This document shows positions 30,001 to 44,353 of a DNA stretch of 52,742 nt, piece by piece. The stretch is taken from contig NZ_JAMBON010000024.1 of assembly GCF_023715655.1 (NCBI RefSeq), positions 1 through 52,742 on the forward strand, written 5' to 3'. The first letter of the stretch is position 1. The number at the start of each line of letters is the position of its first letter. The notes under the pieces were generated by a model. It was not told the DNA's origin. It saw only the letters and a list, made by a program, of their open reading frames with translations, and did not search any database. Origin of the DNA: Oceanobacillus luteolus (GTDB lineage Bacteria; Bacillota; Bacilli; Bacillales; Amphibacillaceae). The position numbers and the translations under genes are program-made.

Positions 30001-30699
30001 ATGAGACAAATAATTGCTCTTGGTGGTGGTGGATTTTCAATGGAACCCAATAATCCATTGTTAGATTTGTATATATTAAAACAAGCAAAGAAAGTTAATC
30101 CGCAAATTTGCTTTATCCCTACTGCAAGTGGAGATTCTGAAAATTATATATCAAGGTTTTATAACTTTTTTAATCAACAAGATTGTAAACCATCCCATTT
30201 ATCCTTATTTGAACCTCCAACAAGGGATCTTGAGGGCTTTATTTTAGAAAAGGACATTGTTTACGTTGGTGGAGGAAACACTAAAAATCTTTTAGCTTTG
30301 TGGAAAGAATGGGGGTTAGACAGTATTTTAAGAAAAGCGTGGAATCAAGGCGTTATTTTAGCTGGGTTAAGTGCGGGTTCCATTTGTTGGTTTGAAGAAG
30401 GAGTTACTGACTCGTATGGAGATGGACTTGAACCAATAAAATGTTTGGGTTTCTTGAAGGGGAGTAATTGTCCGCATTACGATGGAGAAATAGATAGAAG
30501 ACCTACATATCACAAACTTATCGAATCAAAAGAAATACAAGCAGGGGTCGCGGTTGATGATGGAGTTGCTATTCATTACAAGGAACAAGGAATTAGTAAA
30601 ATAGTTAGCTCAAGGCCTAACGCTAAGGCGTATAGTGTTTCCTTCGAAACTGAAGTTGTTGAGGCAACACTTCAGACAGAATTTTTAGGTTCTTATTGA
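30001..30699 (+). CDS. Peptidase S51 family (peptidase E-like)
   Basis: A 232-residue S51 peptidase like B. subtilis YgaJ. The nucleophile serine lies in AGLSAGSICWF (Ser124), preceded by VYVGGGNTKNLL. The partner Asp/His region includes HYDGEIDRR. PepE enzymes cut N-terminal Asp-X dipeptides. YgaJ-type proteins are shorter on substrate evidence, so the exact specificity is inferred. AAAGGAGTG lies before the ATG. Confidence 0.9.
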   Translation: MRQIIALGGGGFSMEPNNPLLDLYILKQAKKVNPQICFIPTASGDSENYISRFYNFFNQQDCKPSHLSLFEPPTRDLEGFILEKDIVYVGGGNTKNLLALWKEWGLDSILRKAWNQGVILAGLSAGSICWFEEGVTDSYGDGLEPIKCLGFLKGSNCPHYDGEIDRRPTYHKLIESKEIQAGVAVDDGVAIHYKEQGISKIVSSRPNAKAYSVSFETEVVEATLQTEFLGSY

Positions 30700-30834: not shown

Positions 30835-30890
30835 CTAAAAATCCTACTCCACATTTCATAGAATTGTGGTAAAATATTCCTAAATCTAAA

Positions 30891-31188
30891 AGCGATGTGG
30901 AGAGTATATGTGCTTAAGCATGACAGAGAACTCCGTTAGCTGGGATGGAGGATGTAGGAGCACATGGAACCAAGCCTTGGAGCTGCACATAGGAAATTGT
31001 CTGTTTTAGATGGATGATGTGCCGGTTTCTCCCGTTAAAGAGATAGAGTATGACCTGCAATCTATTGTGCAGAAGTACTCGAAAAGGTTTTCGTGGCGAC
31101 ACAAAAACAAATTGAGGTGGCACCACGAACTTCTGAATTCAGGAGTCTCGTCCTCAAGTCTAATGACTTGGGGGTGGGGCTCTTTTTT
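30891..31188 (+). promoter_or_regulatory. T-box riboswitch leader, reads as glutamine-type
   Basis: All T-box parts are visible. Stem I base is AGC 30891-30893 with GCT 30982-30984, with a GATG/TTGGAG kink-turn. The S-turn pairs AGTA 30903-30906 with GAA 30967-30969, and the upper stem is ATGTGC with GCACAT. The ACAGAGA and GCTG elements are near the top. The T-box core is TTGAGG, TGGCACC, ACGA (31112-31127). The antiterminator pairs TTGAGG and ACGA with TCGTCCTCAA at 31148-31157. The competing terminator is GAGTCTCGTCCTCAAGT with ACTTGGGGGTGGGGCTC and a T run. By analogy with other T-boxes the specifier after GAA-N is CAA (30971-30973), glutamine. TGGC would pair with a G73 discriminator, as tRNA-Gln has. 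It controls the MFS gene 36 bp downstream. Confidence 0.9.
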
Positions 31189-31223: not shown

Positions 31224-32423
31224 ATGTTGAAACTGATGAAGTGGAGAAATCCCTTATTACTTTTATTAGGTATTGGCGTATCCAATTTAGGTGCCTGGAT
31301 CTATTTGATTGCGCTTAACTTGATTATTTTGGATATGACAGGATCGGCATTAGCGGTATCTGTCCTTTATATCCTTTTACCGATTGCTGCTTTATGCACA
31401 AATTTTTGGTCAGGAAGTTTTATTGACAGGTTGAATAAAAGGAACTTAATGATTTTCTTAGACATAATCAGAGCATTGTTCATATTTTTCCTCCCGTTGA
31501 TTGAATCCCTGATCCTAATTTATGTGTGGGTTTTTATCATCAATATTGCGAGTTCCATTTTTGGTCCTACATCTATGGTATATATGACGAAGCTGATAGA
31601 TAAGAAAGATAGACAAAGATTTAATGCATTTCGAAATTTCATTAATTCAAGTGGCTTTATTTTGGGGCCTTCCATTGCAGGGGGTTTATTTATCATATAT
31701 CTGGCAATCCAGCTAAATGCTTTAGCATTATGTATATCAGCGGTGATCATCTTTTTACTTCCCAATTTAGAATTAAAAGGGGAAGTTATTTCTCAAAAAG
31801 TTGGCATTGCCGTAATCAAAAATGATTGGAGAGAAATCCTCCGTTTTAGTAAATCAAACACGCATATAACATTGGTTTATGTTCTCTTTAGCGGAGTTAC
31901 AGTTTGTATGACTGCGTTGGACTCTTTAGAAGCTGCATTTGCAACAAAAGTTCTTTTTTTATCTGAGAGTACCTATGGTTTTCTTGTAAGTGTCGCAGGA
32001 ATCGGGATTATCTTTGGCTCACTATCAAATGCTTTGCTCGCTAATACGTTGAAAGTGAGAGCGCTTATTGGTTTTGGTGCAATCTTTACACCACTTGGTT
32101 ATTTGATCTTTGCATTTTCGCAGGGTTTTATTACGGCATCCATAGGATTTTTTATATTAACGTTCGCCTTGTCATACGCAAATACGGGGTTCTTAACATT
32201 TTATCAAAACAACGTACATGCCGAAATTATGGGGAGATTCTCTAGTTTTTTTGGGGTGTTAGAGGCATTATTAATTATCCTATTCACAGGAATAGTTGGA
32301 GTTTTTTCTGAGTTATACGGTATTCGGTTTGTGTATATTATAGGCTCATTTGCATTCTTGGTATTAGGATTCATTGTGAATTGGGTTATATGGGATAAGT
32401 CGAAAAAAGCCTATTATTATTGA
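31224..32423 (+). CDS. MFS transporter under T-box control
   Basis: A 399-residue major facilitator with twelve predicted helices. It begins WRNPLLLLLGIGVSNLGAWIYLIA, and the loop 2-3 motif GSFIDRLNKRN is of the drug-H+ antiporter type. It resembles MFS_3/macrolide-efflux and enterobactin-exporter-like proteins, so export of a small molecule is likelier than import. The ATG 31224 follows AGGAGTGG. An in-frame upstream start lies too close to the riboswitch terminator. Its only visible control is the T-box, meaning it is made when the cognate uncharged tRNA accumulates. Substrate unknown. Confidence 0.88.
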   Translation: MLKLMKWRNPLLLLLGIGVSNLGAWIYLIALNLIILDMTGSALAVSVLYILLPIAALCTNFWSGSFIDRLNKRNLMIFLDIIRALFIFFLPLIESLILIYVWVFIINIASSIFGPTSMVYMTKLIDKKDRQRFNAFRNFINSSGFILGPSIAGGLFIIYLAIQLNALALCISAVIIFLLPNLELKGEVISQKVGIAVIKNDWREILRFSKSNTHITLVYVLFSGVTVCMTALDSLEAAFATKVLFLSESTYGFLVSVAGIGIIFGSLSNALLANTLKVRALIGFGAIFTPLGYLIFAFSQGFITASIGFFILTFALSYANTGFLTFYQNNVHAEIMGRFSSFFGVLEALLIILFTGIVGVFSELYGIRFVYIIGSFAFLVLGFIVNWVIWDKSKKAYYY

Positions 32424-32659: not shown

Positions 32660-33196
32660 GTGTTAACCGATAAGCGTTTAATTCGTTACATATTAAAAAA
32701 AGGTTCGGATCAAGCTGCGGATGAATTGATACGACGTTATTACGACGACCTGTACTTTTATCTTTATCGTCAAGTAGGTAACGGAAATGACGCTCTTGAT
32801 TTAACACAGGACGTTTTTATCGCTGCTTTAAAAGGATTGAGTTCATATGATGATCGCAAATCATCCTTTAGAACATGGCTCTTCCGTATTGGAACCTATA
32901 AAGTCATTGATGCACGACGCAAGGTGAAGATGACTTGGTCAGAATTGAAAGATGAAGGGTGGATTGAAGAAAAGGATTTTAATGAAAGTTTGTATCAGAA
33001 GGAACTATTAGGGGCGATTAATCAATATGTTGCAAGCTTTCGTCCGGAGATTCAGGAAGTCTTCCGATTAAGAGTCTATGGGGAATTATCATTTCCAGAG
33101 ATTGCTTCATTACTTGCTCAAAAGGAAGAGCGAATCAAAGCCCAATACTATCGGCTGATTAAAAAAATTAGAGAGGAGTTTCCTGAACATGAATAG
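32660..33196 (+). CDS. ECF-like RNA polymerase sigma factor
   Basis: A 178-residue sigma-70 family protein with only regions 2 and 4. Region 2 includes YYDDLYFYLYRQVGNGNDALDLTQDVFIAALKG and the FRTWLFRIGTYKVIDARRK DNA-melting/-10 part. Region 4 is VFRLRVYGELSFPEIASLL plus a basic helix. GTG start with GAAAGGAGC. Its 3' end overlaps the next gene by 8 bp and four more genes follow with overlaps, so it heads a five-gene operon and probably turns it on. The signal is unknown. Confidence 0.9.
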   Translation: MLTDKRLIRYILKKGSDQAADELIRRYYDDLYFYLYRQVGNGNDALDLTQDVFIAALKGLSSYDDRKSSFRTWLFRIGTYKVIDARRKVKMTWSELKDEGWIEEKDFNESLYQKELLGAINQYVASFRPEIQEVFRLRVYGELSFPEIASLLAQKEERIKAQYYRLIKKIREEFPEHE

Positions 33197-37280: not shown

Positions 37281-37627
37281 GTGAGATGGGCTCCATAAAT
37301 CATACAGGTTTTTAAGCAAAGTGTAGATGTTATCCTAAAGATGTTTGTTGAAATTCGCATCTAATTTATATAGTGTTTGTGAAATATTGTTCTTTAGCAA
37401 AAAGGGGCAGTATAGTGAAAGAGGAAAGGATAGATTATGTTTTTTAATTAGTAAATAATATACTTATAGATTATTAGATAGCCGTCTGGTAAATTAGAAG
37501 TGTGGAAAAAAACGGAAAAAATGTAAACTCTAAAATCGTATGTAAAAAACCTTAGAGTACTCATTATTGGGATGCTAGGGGAATTGTGGGGATAAAGTTT
37601 TTAAAGACAAACTTAGGGGTGTTACAA
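37281..37627. other. Intergenic region before the CamS-like gene
   Basis: No gene visible. It is purine-rich near 37500-37530 (GTGGAAAAAAACGGAAAAAA). It should hold the promoter of the broken lipoprotein gene, and I cannot pick a convincing one. Confidence 0.5.
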
Positions 37628-38718
37628 ATGAAAAAGATACTTATCTGGTTTTTAGGTGCTTTAGTAGTCCTATCCAGTTGCGCACAAATTGGGGAAGAAC
37701 CAAAAGATGATAATGAGAAGGAAAATCTGCCTGTTTTAGGAAGCCAATCCTCAGAAGAAACGTACCGGATGATTACTCCCTATAAAACAGGGGCTGCAAG
37801 GGGGAGAATTACAACGCAGATATCCAATCGCGTAGATATAGATGAATTGGAAGTGGGACTAAGGCGTCATTCTATGGATGTATTCGACCCGAGTGAATTC
37901 TATTTCCAAGAGGGGCAGTATTTATCGGACGACACGATTATAAATTGGATTGCCGAACTTAATCCGGCAAGAAAGGATAATTGGAGTGAAAAAAACATAG
38001 GGAAAATCCACGGGTTTTCTCACATGTTCTAGAACAAAATTACTTAAAAAGAGTTGGTGAAAAAGAGGTTGAGTTGGCAGGAATCTCCATCGGGATTGCG
38101 TTAAAGTCCGTATATAGCTTCCAAGCACCACTACATGGTGAATCTTTTACCGAAGAGATTGATATGAATCGTATGATGAGGAAGGGATATGAGGTAGCAC
38201 AAAGAGTAGTGGATGATATAAGAGAATTGGAAGGACTTTCTGACATCCCTATTATGATCGCTTTATATCGCGAGTCCGAGCCGTCTTCGCCTATACCTGG
38301 AAATTATGTAGCAAGAACAATCGTTACAGATAAAAATACAATTACGAACTGGGAAACCATTGATGAGGAATATATTCTCTTTCCTTCCGAGGAAAGCGAA
38401 CATAAACATTTGGAAGAACATGAGAACGTAAAGCGCTTTGGCGATAAAATTGCACAATATTTTCCAAATTATACTGGATTGACTGGGAGCGGATTTTCTA
38501 CTAATAAACAACTCCAGACTCTATCAATAGAAATTCCAATTGAGCTCTTTGGTAATTCCGAGCTTACAGGGTTTATGCAGCACGTATCCGACCTAGTATA
38601 CGATATATTTGATAATTATTACGACATAGAAATAAAAGTAACCTCTAGCAATGAAACCATAGGCCATATATACCGGAAAGCCGGTGATGAATCTCTTCAA
38701 GTATATATCTATCATTAG
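37628..38718 (+). pseudogene. camS: CamS/YerH family sex-pheromone-precursor lipoprotein, frameshifted
   Basis: ATG 37628 starts a lipoprotein signal peptide with lipobox LSSC (Cys18), then the CamS domain start (SEETYRMITPYKTGAARG, and further on EFYFQEGQYLSDDTI). At about 38027-38029 the frame shifts. Before it the text reads GFSHM, after it LEQNYLKRVGEKEVELAGISIGIALKSVYSF in another frame, continuing to a normal C-terminus. Joined, the parts give about 362 residues, near full length. One deleted base explains it. CamS-type lipoproteins release small pheromone-like peptides from their signal sequence, and that part is intact here. Confidence 0.85.
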
Positions 38719-44011: not shown

Positions 44012-44182
44012 TAAAATAAAAACCCTCTTCTCGATATAAGAAGAGGGTGAATTCAACAAAAATAGTCGAACGGCTCTTCTTATCTTTCAGGCACACGCCT
44101 GCTGGAATTAGCACAGTTCTTGCATGAAGCAAGTCTGTTGCCGAGGCTTCAAAGGGCCAGTCCCTCCACCTCTCTGGATAAG
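44012..44182 (-). promoter_or_regulatory. SAM-I riboswitch (S-box) with terminator
   Basis: Read on the minus strand from 44182: CTTATCCAGAGAGGTGGAGG, then GACTGGCCC, GAAGCCTCGGCAAC, a variable P3/P4 part and GTGCCTGAAAGATAAG closing the P1 helix at 44079. These are the conserved S-box elements, including the kink-turn and the SAM-contacting core. The expression platform is ACCCTCTTCT paired with GAGAAGAGGGT and a T tract, ending near 44012. High SAM should end transcription before yezD. Confidence 0.97.
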
Positions 44183-44353
44183 AAAATCAAACTAATTTAA
44201 TTTTTAAAATTTATAGGTAAAGAATAATCTAGTTTTTCCCTTCTGTCAAGAGGAAGATGGAAATTATTTCTAAAACGGACTTTTTCTAAAAGGGGAATCG
44301 GCATGTTTGTCGAATTATTTATTTAGGGCATTCAGGAGAAGGAGAGAAAAAGA

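What the first reader, a model, noticed from the sequence alone, without database searches (positions are those of the whole stretch)
30891..31188. T-box riboswitch in front of an MFS exporter, with glutamine-type specificity signals
Seen: a complete T-box leader (stem I with AGTA/GAA S-turn, T-box core with TGGC, antiterminator and terminator) lies 36 bp before an MFS gene and no aminoacyl-tRNA synthetase or biosynthetic gene. By alignment to other T-boxes the specifier is CAA, and the TGGC bulge calls for a G73 tRNA. tRNA-Gln fits both. Gln-type T-boxes are uncommon as far as I know, and Bacillaceae make Gln-tRNA indirectly through GluRS and GatCAB. Inference: the transporter is made when tRNA-Gln is uncharged, so it may export an inhibitor of Gln-tRNA formation or move glutamine-related compounds.
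Basis: partly seen in the sequence, partly recalled or inferred. Interest (0 to 1): 0.82.

Follow-up and report, generated by a model that had tools for sequence, protein, structure and literature searches.

The report
Glutamine-tRNA-sensing riboswitch before export pump
Ahead of a gene for a drug-pump-like membrane transporter lies an RNA switch that, judging from about 180 related leaders, reads the glutamine transfer RNA and should turn the gene on when that tRNA is uncharged; the switch type is well known, but pairing it with an export-type pump across many Bacilli is unusual and hints at a defence against blocked tRNA charging.

Summary
The T-box is real: RF00230 at 30886-31158, 86.5 bits, E 2.2e-19, just under the curated cut-off of 93, about 36 bp before an MFS gene starting at 31224. 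Of 215 upstream regions of MFS homologues (a chosen part of the hits), 180 match a profile of this leader. At the specifier 177 of the 178 with letters read CAA and one GAA, while the bases on either side vary; this holds with those columns masked. The UGGN base is C (164) or U (16). That fits tRNA-Gln, G73 here, and not the A73 of tRNA-Lys, -Pro and -Glu. In 36 leaders 48 of 69 pairs change on both sides. So Gln holds; Lys or Pro do not. The transporter resembles drug/H+ antiporters; direction and substrate are untested. With GatB and one Glu/Gln-type synthetase of GluRS size, uncharged tRNA-Gln should report failed glutamylation, not failed GatCAB. A 2008 survey gave MFS T-boxes in Bacillus as Lys, possibly this family. 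Purpose (efflux of a charging inhibitor) is inference, about 0.4. The window's own leader is 3 nt short near the stem I base.

The parts
30867..30875 (+). promoter-like extended -10 (TGG TAAAAT)
   Evidence: read from the sequence; no promoter tool was run
30886..31158 (+). T-box leader (RF00230)
   Evidence: cmscan 86.5 bits, E 2.2e-19; same score in the genome-wide search
30903..30906 (+). AGUA of the specifier-loop S-turn
   Evidence: aligned to the RF00230 consensus
30971..30973 (+). specifier CAA (Gln)
   Evidence: RF00230 alignment; CAA in 177 of 178 leaders with letters and in 8 of 8 more
31118..31121 (+). UGGC of the T-box bulge, can pair with the GCCA end of tRNA-Gln
   Evidence: C in 164 and U in 16 of 180 leaders; tRNA-Gln G73
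31114..31155 (+). antiterminator (GAGG...CGA with UCG...CCUC)
   Evidence: 245 of 251 cells paired in 36 leaders, 96-175 when slid
31141..31188 (+). intrinsic terminator, 20 bp and T-run, overlaps the antiterminator 3' arm
   Evidence: -29.6 kcal/mol; helix 13
31224..32423 (+). MFS transporter, 399 aa, drug/H+ antiporter-like
   Evidence: PF07690 E 4.7e-24, PF05977 E 3.4e-8; TIGR00900 far below cut-off; AlphaFold2 pLDDT 88.9
30001..30699 (+). neighbouring S51-family peptidase, not shown to belong to the system
   Evidence: PF03575 E 1.6e-62; near the MFS in 2 of 135 loci, the window's own included

Best explanation
A T-box riboswitch specific for tRNA-Gln(UUG) controls, by transcription antitermination, a gene for an efflux-type MFS transporter. 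While tRNA-Gln is aminoacylated the terminator forms and the gene is off. When uncharged tRNA-Gln builds up, its anticodon UUG pairs with CAA, its GCCA end pairs with UGGC, the antiterminator is held and the transporter is made. SHOWN by computation: the leader, its specifier frame, its discriminator match and its conservation with this transporter clade. INFERRED: binding and antitermination in the cell, and export as the direction of transport. INFERRED further (about 0.4): because this genome shows no separate GlnRS, the signal means failed glutamylation of tRNA-Gln (GluRS blocked, or glutamate short), and the pump expels a compound that blocks this step.
For: T-box by Rfam and in 16 of 16 relatives scanned. 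CAA in 177 of 178 leaders with letters; base before it A68/G41/T20/C47, base after it G159/A17/C2. With specifier columns masked in the profile: 175 CAA plus 2 CAA in a loop one base shorter, of 178; 154 of 155 among distinct sequences. Eight further leaders of one genus, fetched as a check, all read CAA. UGGN is C or U in 180 of 180. tRNA-Gln genes read (one or two per genome) are G73 in this genome and in 22 of 23 others. Covariation: 95.7% of cells paired, 366 double changes against 113 in shuffles and 31-80 when slid. Leader and transporter go together: 178 of 196 regions at 44% MFS identity or more; below that only one genus, 10 of 10, and 0 of 29 others. T-box clade and paralogues part at 100/99. 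Export: conserved GPxxxG and GxxxDR elements (motif names recalled), NorA by profile over about 110 positions, LmrP first and NorA and MdfA high among folds.
Against: No expression, binding or transport data. The window's leader is under the Rfam cut-off and 3 nt short at the K-turn / stem IB stretch. 18 of 196 close homologues have no leader match (10 are Exiguobacterium copies); leaders in three f29 genomes have decayed (L107, L148, L155). Nine CAA leaders with UGGU sit in genomes with tRNA-Gln G73, so a G-U wobble is needed and there is no compensatory covariation. The structure counted was derived from the same alignment. The top folds also include SV2A, AmpG, ferroportins, MCT1 and VMATs, so the fold does not prove drug export. 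I know of no natural GluRS inhibitor that is a substrate.
Confidence: 0.8

Rival explanations
1. Gln sensing is right, but the MFS takes up glutamine, glutamate or a peptide, as T-box-controlled transporters are usually thought to do.
For: The T-box transporters of Wels 2008 are treated as amino acid transporters or permeases (PMC2494555 sections 10 and 15).
Against: Resemblance to drug/H+ antiporter-type MFS (models below cut-off; NorA) and a conserved GPxxxG element, typical of exporters by recalled knowledge.
Confidence: 0.22
2. Gln sensing is right, and uncharged tRNA-Gln is a proxy for glutamate or nitrogen shortage; the pump exports a metabolite or scavenging compound useful then, not a toxin.
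For: With one synthetase of this family and GatB, tRNA-Gln charging depends on GluRS and Glu. One orthologue has a Glu specifier GAA (L169), as expected if glutamylation is the signal. EntS model among the weak hits.
Against: No conserved biosynthetic neighbour; other nitrogen regulators would do this more simply (inference).
Confidence: 0.28
3. It is a lysine (AAG) or proline (CCA) T-box, as an earlier survey listed (Lys) for MFS T-boxes in Bacillus.
For: PMC2494555 lists MFS/Lys for B. anthracis and BH0807 as lysine-specific permease; its Fig. 6 legend has a colour for 'Pro or Gln'. GAACCAAG can be misread one base either way.
Against: The base before CAA is any of four and the base after it is G, A or C. 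tRNA-Lys and tRNA-Pro have A73 here, yet UGGC is in 164 of 180 leaders. This genome's Lys T-box reads GAA-U-AAA-G with UGGU in the same register.
Confidence: 0.03
4. In this genome the leader is decaying and no longer switches; only the relatives work.
For: 3-nt shorter K-turn / stem IB stretch, score below the gathering cut-off, decayed leaders in other lineages.
Against: Specifier, UGGC, antiterminator and terminator are intact; fold z -3.7; 8 of 16 relatives also score under 93 bits; the MFS frame is intact.
Confidence: 0.15

Closest known systems
T-box leader, Rfam RF00230 (transcriptional)
   Same: stem I with AGUA/GAA specifier loop, UGGN antiterminator bulge, competing terminator
   Different: Gln specifier (with Lys and Glu the least common in TBDB; PMC7778990, passages); target is an efflux-type transporter and not charging, biosynthesis or uptake
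T-box-controlled MFS of Bacillus in Wels et al. 2008 (PMC2494555; sections 10, 13, 15, 19 and passages seen)
   Same: T-box in front of an MFS gene in Bacillus; a degenerated box in some members is mentioned
   Different: given there as Lys (tables); orthology with BH0807 could not be tested here
thrS-ArsR-MFS operon under tandem T-boxes (PMC12452182, passages seen)
   Same: an MFS transporter under T-box control in Bacillus
   Different: Thr synthetase operon, tandem boxes; role called uncertain there
MFS exporters LmrP, NorA, MdfA
   Same: fold; NorA also by sequence profile
   Different: 15-17% identity over the fold for most of their entries listed; substrate here unknown

Membership tests
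T-box riboswitch (RF00230) | covariance-model match | tested here: met
   86.5 bits, E 2.2e-19, full model length; below the curated cut-off of 93
T-box riboswitch (RF00230) | stem I specifier loop with AGUA / GAA | tested here: met
T-box riboswitch (RF00230) | UGGN bulge and antiterminator that excludes a terminator | tested here: met
T-box riboswitch (RF00230) | structure conserved by covariation | tested here: met
   48 of 69 pairs with change on both sides in 36 leaders
T-box riboswitch (RF00230) | intact K-turn / stem IB at the stem I base | tested here: inconclusive
   3 nt shorter than in 35 of 35 relatives
T-box riboswitch (RF00230) | antitermination by uncharged cognate tRNA | not testable with these tools
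   needs in vitro transcription or reporter assay
Gln-specific T-box | specifier is a Gln codon | tested here: met
   CAA in 177 of 178 leaders, frame fixed by variation on both sides; 8 of 8 more
Gln-specific T-box | UGGN matches tRNA-Gln N73 | tested here: met
   UGGC with G73 in this genome; UGGU with G73, by wobble only, in 9 CAA genomes
drug/H+ antiporter-type MFS exporter | family profile match above cut-off | tested here: inconclusive
   PF07690 and PF05977 above cut-off; TIGR00900 and the named efflux models below cut-off
drug/H+ antiporter-type MFS exporter | export of a substrate | not testable with these tools
   needs a transport assay
Lys T-box / lysine permease (reading in Wels 2008) | specifier AAG or AAA and UGGU for A73 | tested here: not met
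   third base of an AAG frame varies (G159, A17, C2) and UGGC in 164 of 180

The most novel reading that the evidence does not exclude
Bacilli use a tRNA-Gln T-box as a poison detector: when an antibiotic or toxin blocks glutamylation of tRNA-Gln, the uncharged tRNA itself switches on a dedicated pump for that compound. This would be a conserved resistance circuit sensed through damage to translation and not through the drug's structure, and it would predict an undiscovered family of natural GluRS (or Gln-charging) inhibitors.
Probability: 0.33. Interest if true: 0.82.

Novelty: new variant of a known kind. Interest (0 to 1): 0.56.

Why it matters
T-boxes are textbook switches for charging, making or importing an amino acid. 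Here one of the rarest specificities is kept with an efflux-type pump in 24 families of one order among 61 leader-bearing genomes tabulated, and in two families outside that order. It suggests correcting a Lys annotation, gives a substrate clue for a large unnamed transporter clade, and makes a question testable: what compound makes tRNA-Gln go uncharged and is then pumped out?

Tried and rejected
Rejected: Lys (AAG) and Pro (CCA) frames. Rejected as extra proof: covariation of UGGN with tRNA-Gln N73; nine UGGU/CAA genomes have G73, only the GAA-specifier genome G479 has A73. No operon or neighbour clue (flanks of at most 1.5 kb; the two largest clusters are antisense frames of leader and MFS). 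No T-box at the GlnRS-like genes of four genomes that have a second PF00749 protein. Other genes under this leader: a strict pattern gave 33 matches in 32 of 155 family genomes; 30 lie just upstream of an MFS place (compared by eye), one (G138) is a leader parted from its MFS by an IS200/IS605-like insertion, G016 has no T-box by Rfam, and G137 was not fetched. The reversed pattern matched in 4 genomes. The pattern misses the window itself, so other targets are not excluded. Arg T-box before a GNAT gene: 2 of 20 loci examined by pattern. Fold comparison gave no substrate. Searches for a natural GluRS inhibitor with efflux, peptidyl-nucleotide resistance and T-box-controlled resistance settled nothing; apart from PMC9239234 only listings were seen. 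PADLOC: no match for two proteins.

Limits of the counts. The 215 regions are 30 loci and 40 regions out of 122 places, 25 loci and 40 regions from the capped list, and the best 80 of 451 named loci. The collections overlap; there are 157 distinct leader sequences. Broken or partial homologues were mostly skipped. Identities and strands were copied by hand; family labels were typed by hand. The 180 include two partial leaders, L107 and L148, which Rfam does not recognise. The profile seed was chosen with a GAA-N-CAA pattern, hence the masked control. Rfam scan of the 35 non-hits: 0 of 34; the 35th, L076, is the G138 locus. In the tree 2 of 101 proteins of 300 aa or less were dropped and 4 rows left unlabelled; genus g36 sits on a very long branch, so its place is unsure. 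For class-wide loci 23 of 30 were examined, by profile only.

Full report
The observation. Rfam's T-box model matches window 30886-31158 + over its whole length with 86.5 bits, E 2.2e-19. The default scan does not list it because the curated cut-off is 93 bits. The genome (G000, 4.0 Mb, 206 contigs) gave 22 T-boxes, 16 over the cut-off; this one ranks 19th. Read from the sequence: AGTA at 30903-30906, GAA 30967-30969, CAA 30971-30973, TGGC 31118-31121, and a 20-bp terminator 31141-31184 with a T-run whose 5' side overlaps the antiterminator 3' arm 31148-31155. The MFS start ATG is at 31224. The leader folds better than 100 of 100 shuffles; terminator form -33.1, forced antiterminator -22.8 kcal/mol.

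Which tRNA. In the ten best-scoring T-boxes of this genome (alignments) the gap between GAA and the codon varies from 0 to 2 bases, but the codon ends one base before the 3' strand of stem IB. In that register the window reads CAA; the same register gives CUC, AUC and UCC before genes that by eye are leuS, ileS and serS, and AAA for the Lys T-box. (Eight further T-boxes were seen; one, L016, is ambiguous, and three were not shown.) A single leader could still be argued to be CCA or AAG, so I collected upstream regions of MFS homologues: 55 loci regions named loci. Of these 215, 180 match a profile of this leader family. At the specifier 177 of 178 with letters read CAA and one reads GAA. The base before is A68, G41, T20, C47 (4 gaps); the base after is G159, A17, C2. 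With those columns masked in the profile, 175 align as CAA, 2 as CAA in a loop one base shorter, 1 as GAA, and 2 have no letters; among 157 distinct leader sequences 154 of 155 with letters are CAA. UGGN is C in 164 and U in 16. The window genome's tRNA-Gln has anticodon UUG and G73; tRNA-Pro, tRNA-Lys and tRNA-Glu have A73, while Asn, Asp, Ser and Trp share G73, so the discriminator supports but does not alone prove Gln. In 23 further genomes chosen for their UGGU or UGGC leader, the one or two tRNA-Gln genes read are G73 in 22. UGGU leaders with CAA thus need a wobble pair, which the T-box database paper also allows. The odd genome, G479, has the GAA specifier, UGGU, and A73 on both tRNA-Gln and tRNA-Glu.

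The RNA is under selection. In 36 leaders (window plus 35 named relatives) RNAalifold gives 69 pairs. Counted on the same alignment, 95.7% of cells pair, 48 pairs have changes on both sides, and there are 366 such cells against a shuffled mean of 113 and 31-80 when partners are slid. The antiterminator, not part of that structure, pairs in 245 of 251 cells against 96-175 when slid. One caution: from the G of GC to AGTA the window has 11 bases and each of the 35 relatives has 14, where the K-turn and stem IB lie; this copy may be weakened.

Leader and transporter belong together. The 16 next-best loci of the family-level search all have a T-box by Rfam, 8 of them under 93 bits; in the wider searches a few equally close homologues have none (L086 61%, L088 59%). 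By MFS identity, 178 of 196 regions at 44% or more match the leader profile, two of them only in part. The 18 without are 10 Exiguobacterium copies, Pontibacillus and Shouchella loci each seen twice (L086/L218, L088/L214), Anoxybacillus (L234), L155, L183, and L076, which is cut off from its leader by an IS200/IS605-like insertion. Below 44%, 39 regions were looked at in all: 10 of 10 from genus g36 have the leader, reading GAA-CAA-A with no base between, and 0 of 29 others do (Rfam agrees on the 29). In a tree of 99 proteins the 86 of the T-box clade and 13 paralogues part at 100/99; the label needs 7 changes, against 22.3 in shuffles, so the leader was probably lost several times, for instance in some Exiguobacterium copies (E. 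undae has one copy with, L226, and one without, L227). Decayed leaders are seen in three f29 genomes (L107, L148, L155), while two other f29 genomes (L096, L100) have intact ones. CAA leaders occur in 24 families of the order among 61 leader-bearing genomes tabulated and, among 23 class-wide loci examined, in f49 (6 of 6) and f63 (1 of 2), but not in f62 (0 of 14) or f65 (0 of 1). Named examples include Oceanobacillus, Sporosarcina, Planococcus, Priestia, Salinicoccus and Paenactinomyces.

The transporter. PF07690 E 4.7e-24 and PF05977 E 3.4e-8. Best NCBIfam model TIGR00900 'H+ antiporter', 110.5 bits against a cut-off of 319.6, then EntS, Mef and Tet(V) models, also under cut-off. GxxxDR and GPxxxG elements are invariant; that they are MFS motifs A and C, the latter typical of exporters, is recalled. 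Solved relatives by profile: NorA only, over about 110 positions. AlphaFold2 model pLDDT 88.9; best folds LmrP, MFSD10, SV2A, AmpG, NorA, ferroportin, with MdfA 11th. Export is likely, the substrate open. No neighbour gene is conserved: apart from antisense frames the commonest family is in 12 of 135 loci.

What the signal means. The genome has one PF00749 synthetase, in an open frame of 531 codons, and GatB, so tRNA-Gln should first be loaded with glutamate and then amidated (established pathway). A T-box is blocked by any aminoacylated tRNA, so failure of GatCAB should not induce; failure of glutamylation or lack of glutamate should. Of 14 genomes tested, 4 with the same leader (G176, G485, G506, G223) have a second protein of this family in frames of 556-587 codons, taken here as GlnRS; no T-box lies at those four genes. 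My preferred purpose is efflux of a compound that blocks charging (about 0.4); export of a useful metabolite under Glu shortage (0.28) and uptake of Glu/Gln compounds (0.22) remain open.

What is known. Wels et al. 2008 (PMC2494555; sections 10, 13, 15, 19 and passages) list an MFS under a T-box in B. anthracis as Lys, BH0807 of B. halodurans as a lysine permease under a Lys T-box, and in a figure legend a colour for 'Pro or Gln'. If these are the same family they are better read as Gln; I could not test orthology. TBDB (PMC7778990, passages and section 12) names Lys, Glu and Gln specifiers as the least common and CAA as 95% of Gln specifiers. PMC12452182 (passages) describes a thrS-ArsR-MFS operon under tandem T-boxes with uncertain role. 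My searches listed no paper whose title or shown start of abstract describes a Gln T-box before an MFS; two key surveys are not held, so prior mention is possible.

Verdict. An ordinary switch mechanism with a rare specificity and an unusual kind of target, widely conserved. The sensing is well supported by comparison; the purpose is not yet known.

Noticed in passing
window 30001-30699 +: S51-family peptidase directly upstream of the leader. MccG, an S51 enzyme, gives immunity to peptidyl-nucleotide inhibitors of AspRS, and five of seven stand-alone homologues tested (the list includes Bacillus species) also did (PMC9239234, passages). An S51 gene lies near the MFS in 2 of 135 loci, this one and L234, so the adjacency may be chance.
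   Followed up: partly
L009 (G000 C11:26359-26608 -): Lys T-box (AAA, UGGU) ahead of a GNAT acetyltransferase (PF13302; RimL-type model below cut-off), not a lysine gene.
   Followed up: partly
L010 (G000 C124:41504-41712 -): T-box read as Arg (CGC) ahead of another GNAT acetyltransferase; a T-box core in 2 of 20 loci of that GNAT family examined by pattern.
   Followed up: partly
L007 (G000 C160:9187-9455 -): Met T-box (AUG) ahead of a SAM hydroxide adenosyltransferase family gene.
   Followed up: no
L016 (G000 C121:10130-10364 -): T-box with UGGA whose specifier is unclear in the alignment; its gene was not identified.
   Followed up: no
L169 / L297 (G479 C54, about 212847-213096): The one orthologous leader with a GAA (Glu) specifier and UGGU; this genome's tRNA-Gln has A73.
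   Followed up: partly
L081 (G097 C25): Two Gln-type leaders in tandem, the first followed by what looks like a decayed start of the same MFS gene: a broken duplicate, read by eye.
   Followed up: no
L328 and L076 (G138 C14 and C17): IS200/IS605-like insertion between leader and MFS gene, recognised by eye from the translation.
   Followed up: partly
window 44077-44184 -: SAM-I riboswitch, 92.2 bits.
   Followed up: no
window 32660-33196 +: ECF sigma factor downstream is 86% identical to one beside the MFS in L213 and L090 (perhaps the same species), far more than the MFS itself (56-57%): possibly a mobile stretch.
   Followed up: no
window 37586-38718 +: CamS-like lipoprotein perhaps split over two frames: 37586-38032 matches only the start of PF07537; the second frame 38074-38718 was not searched.
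   Followed up: no
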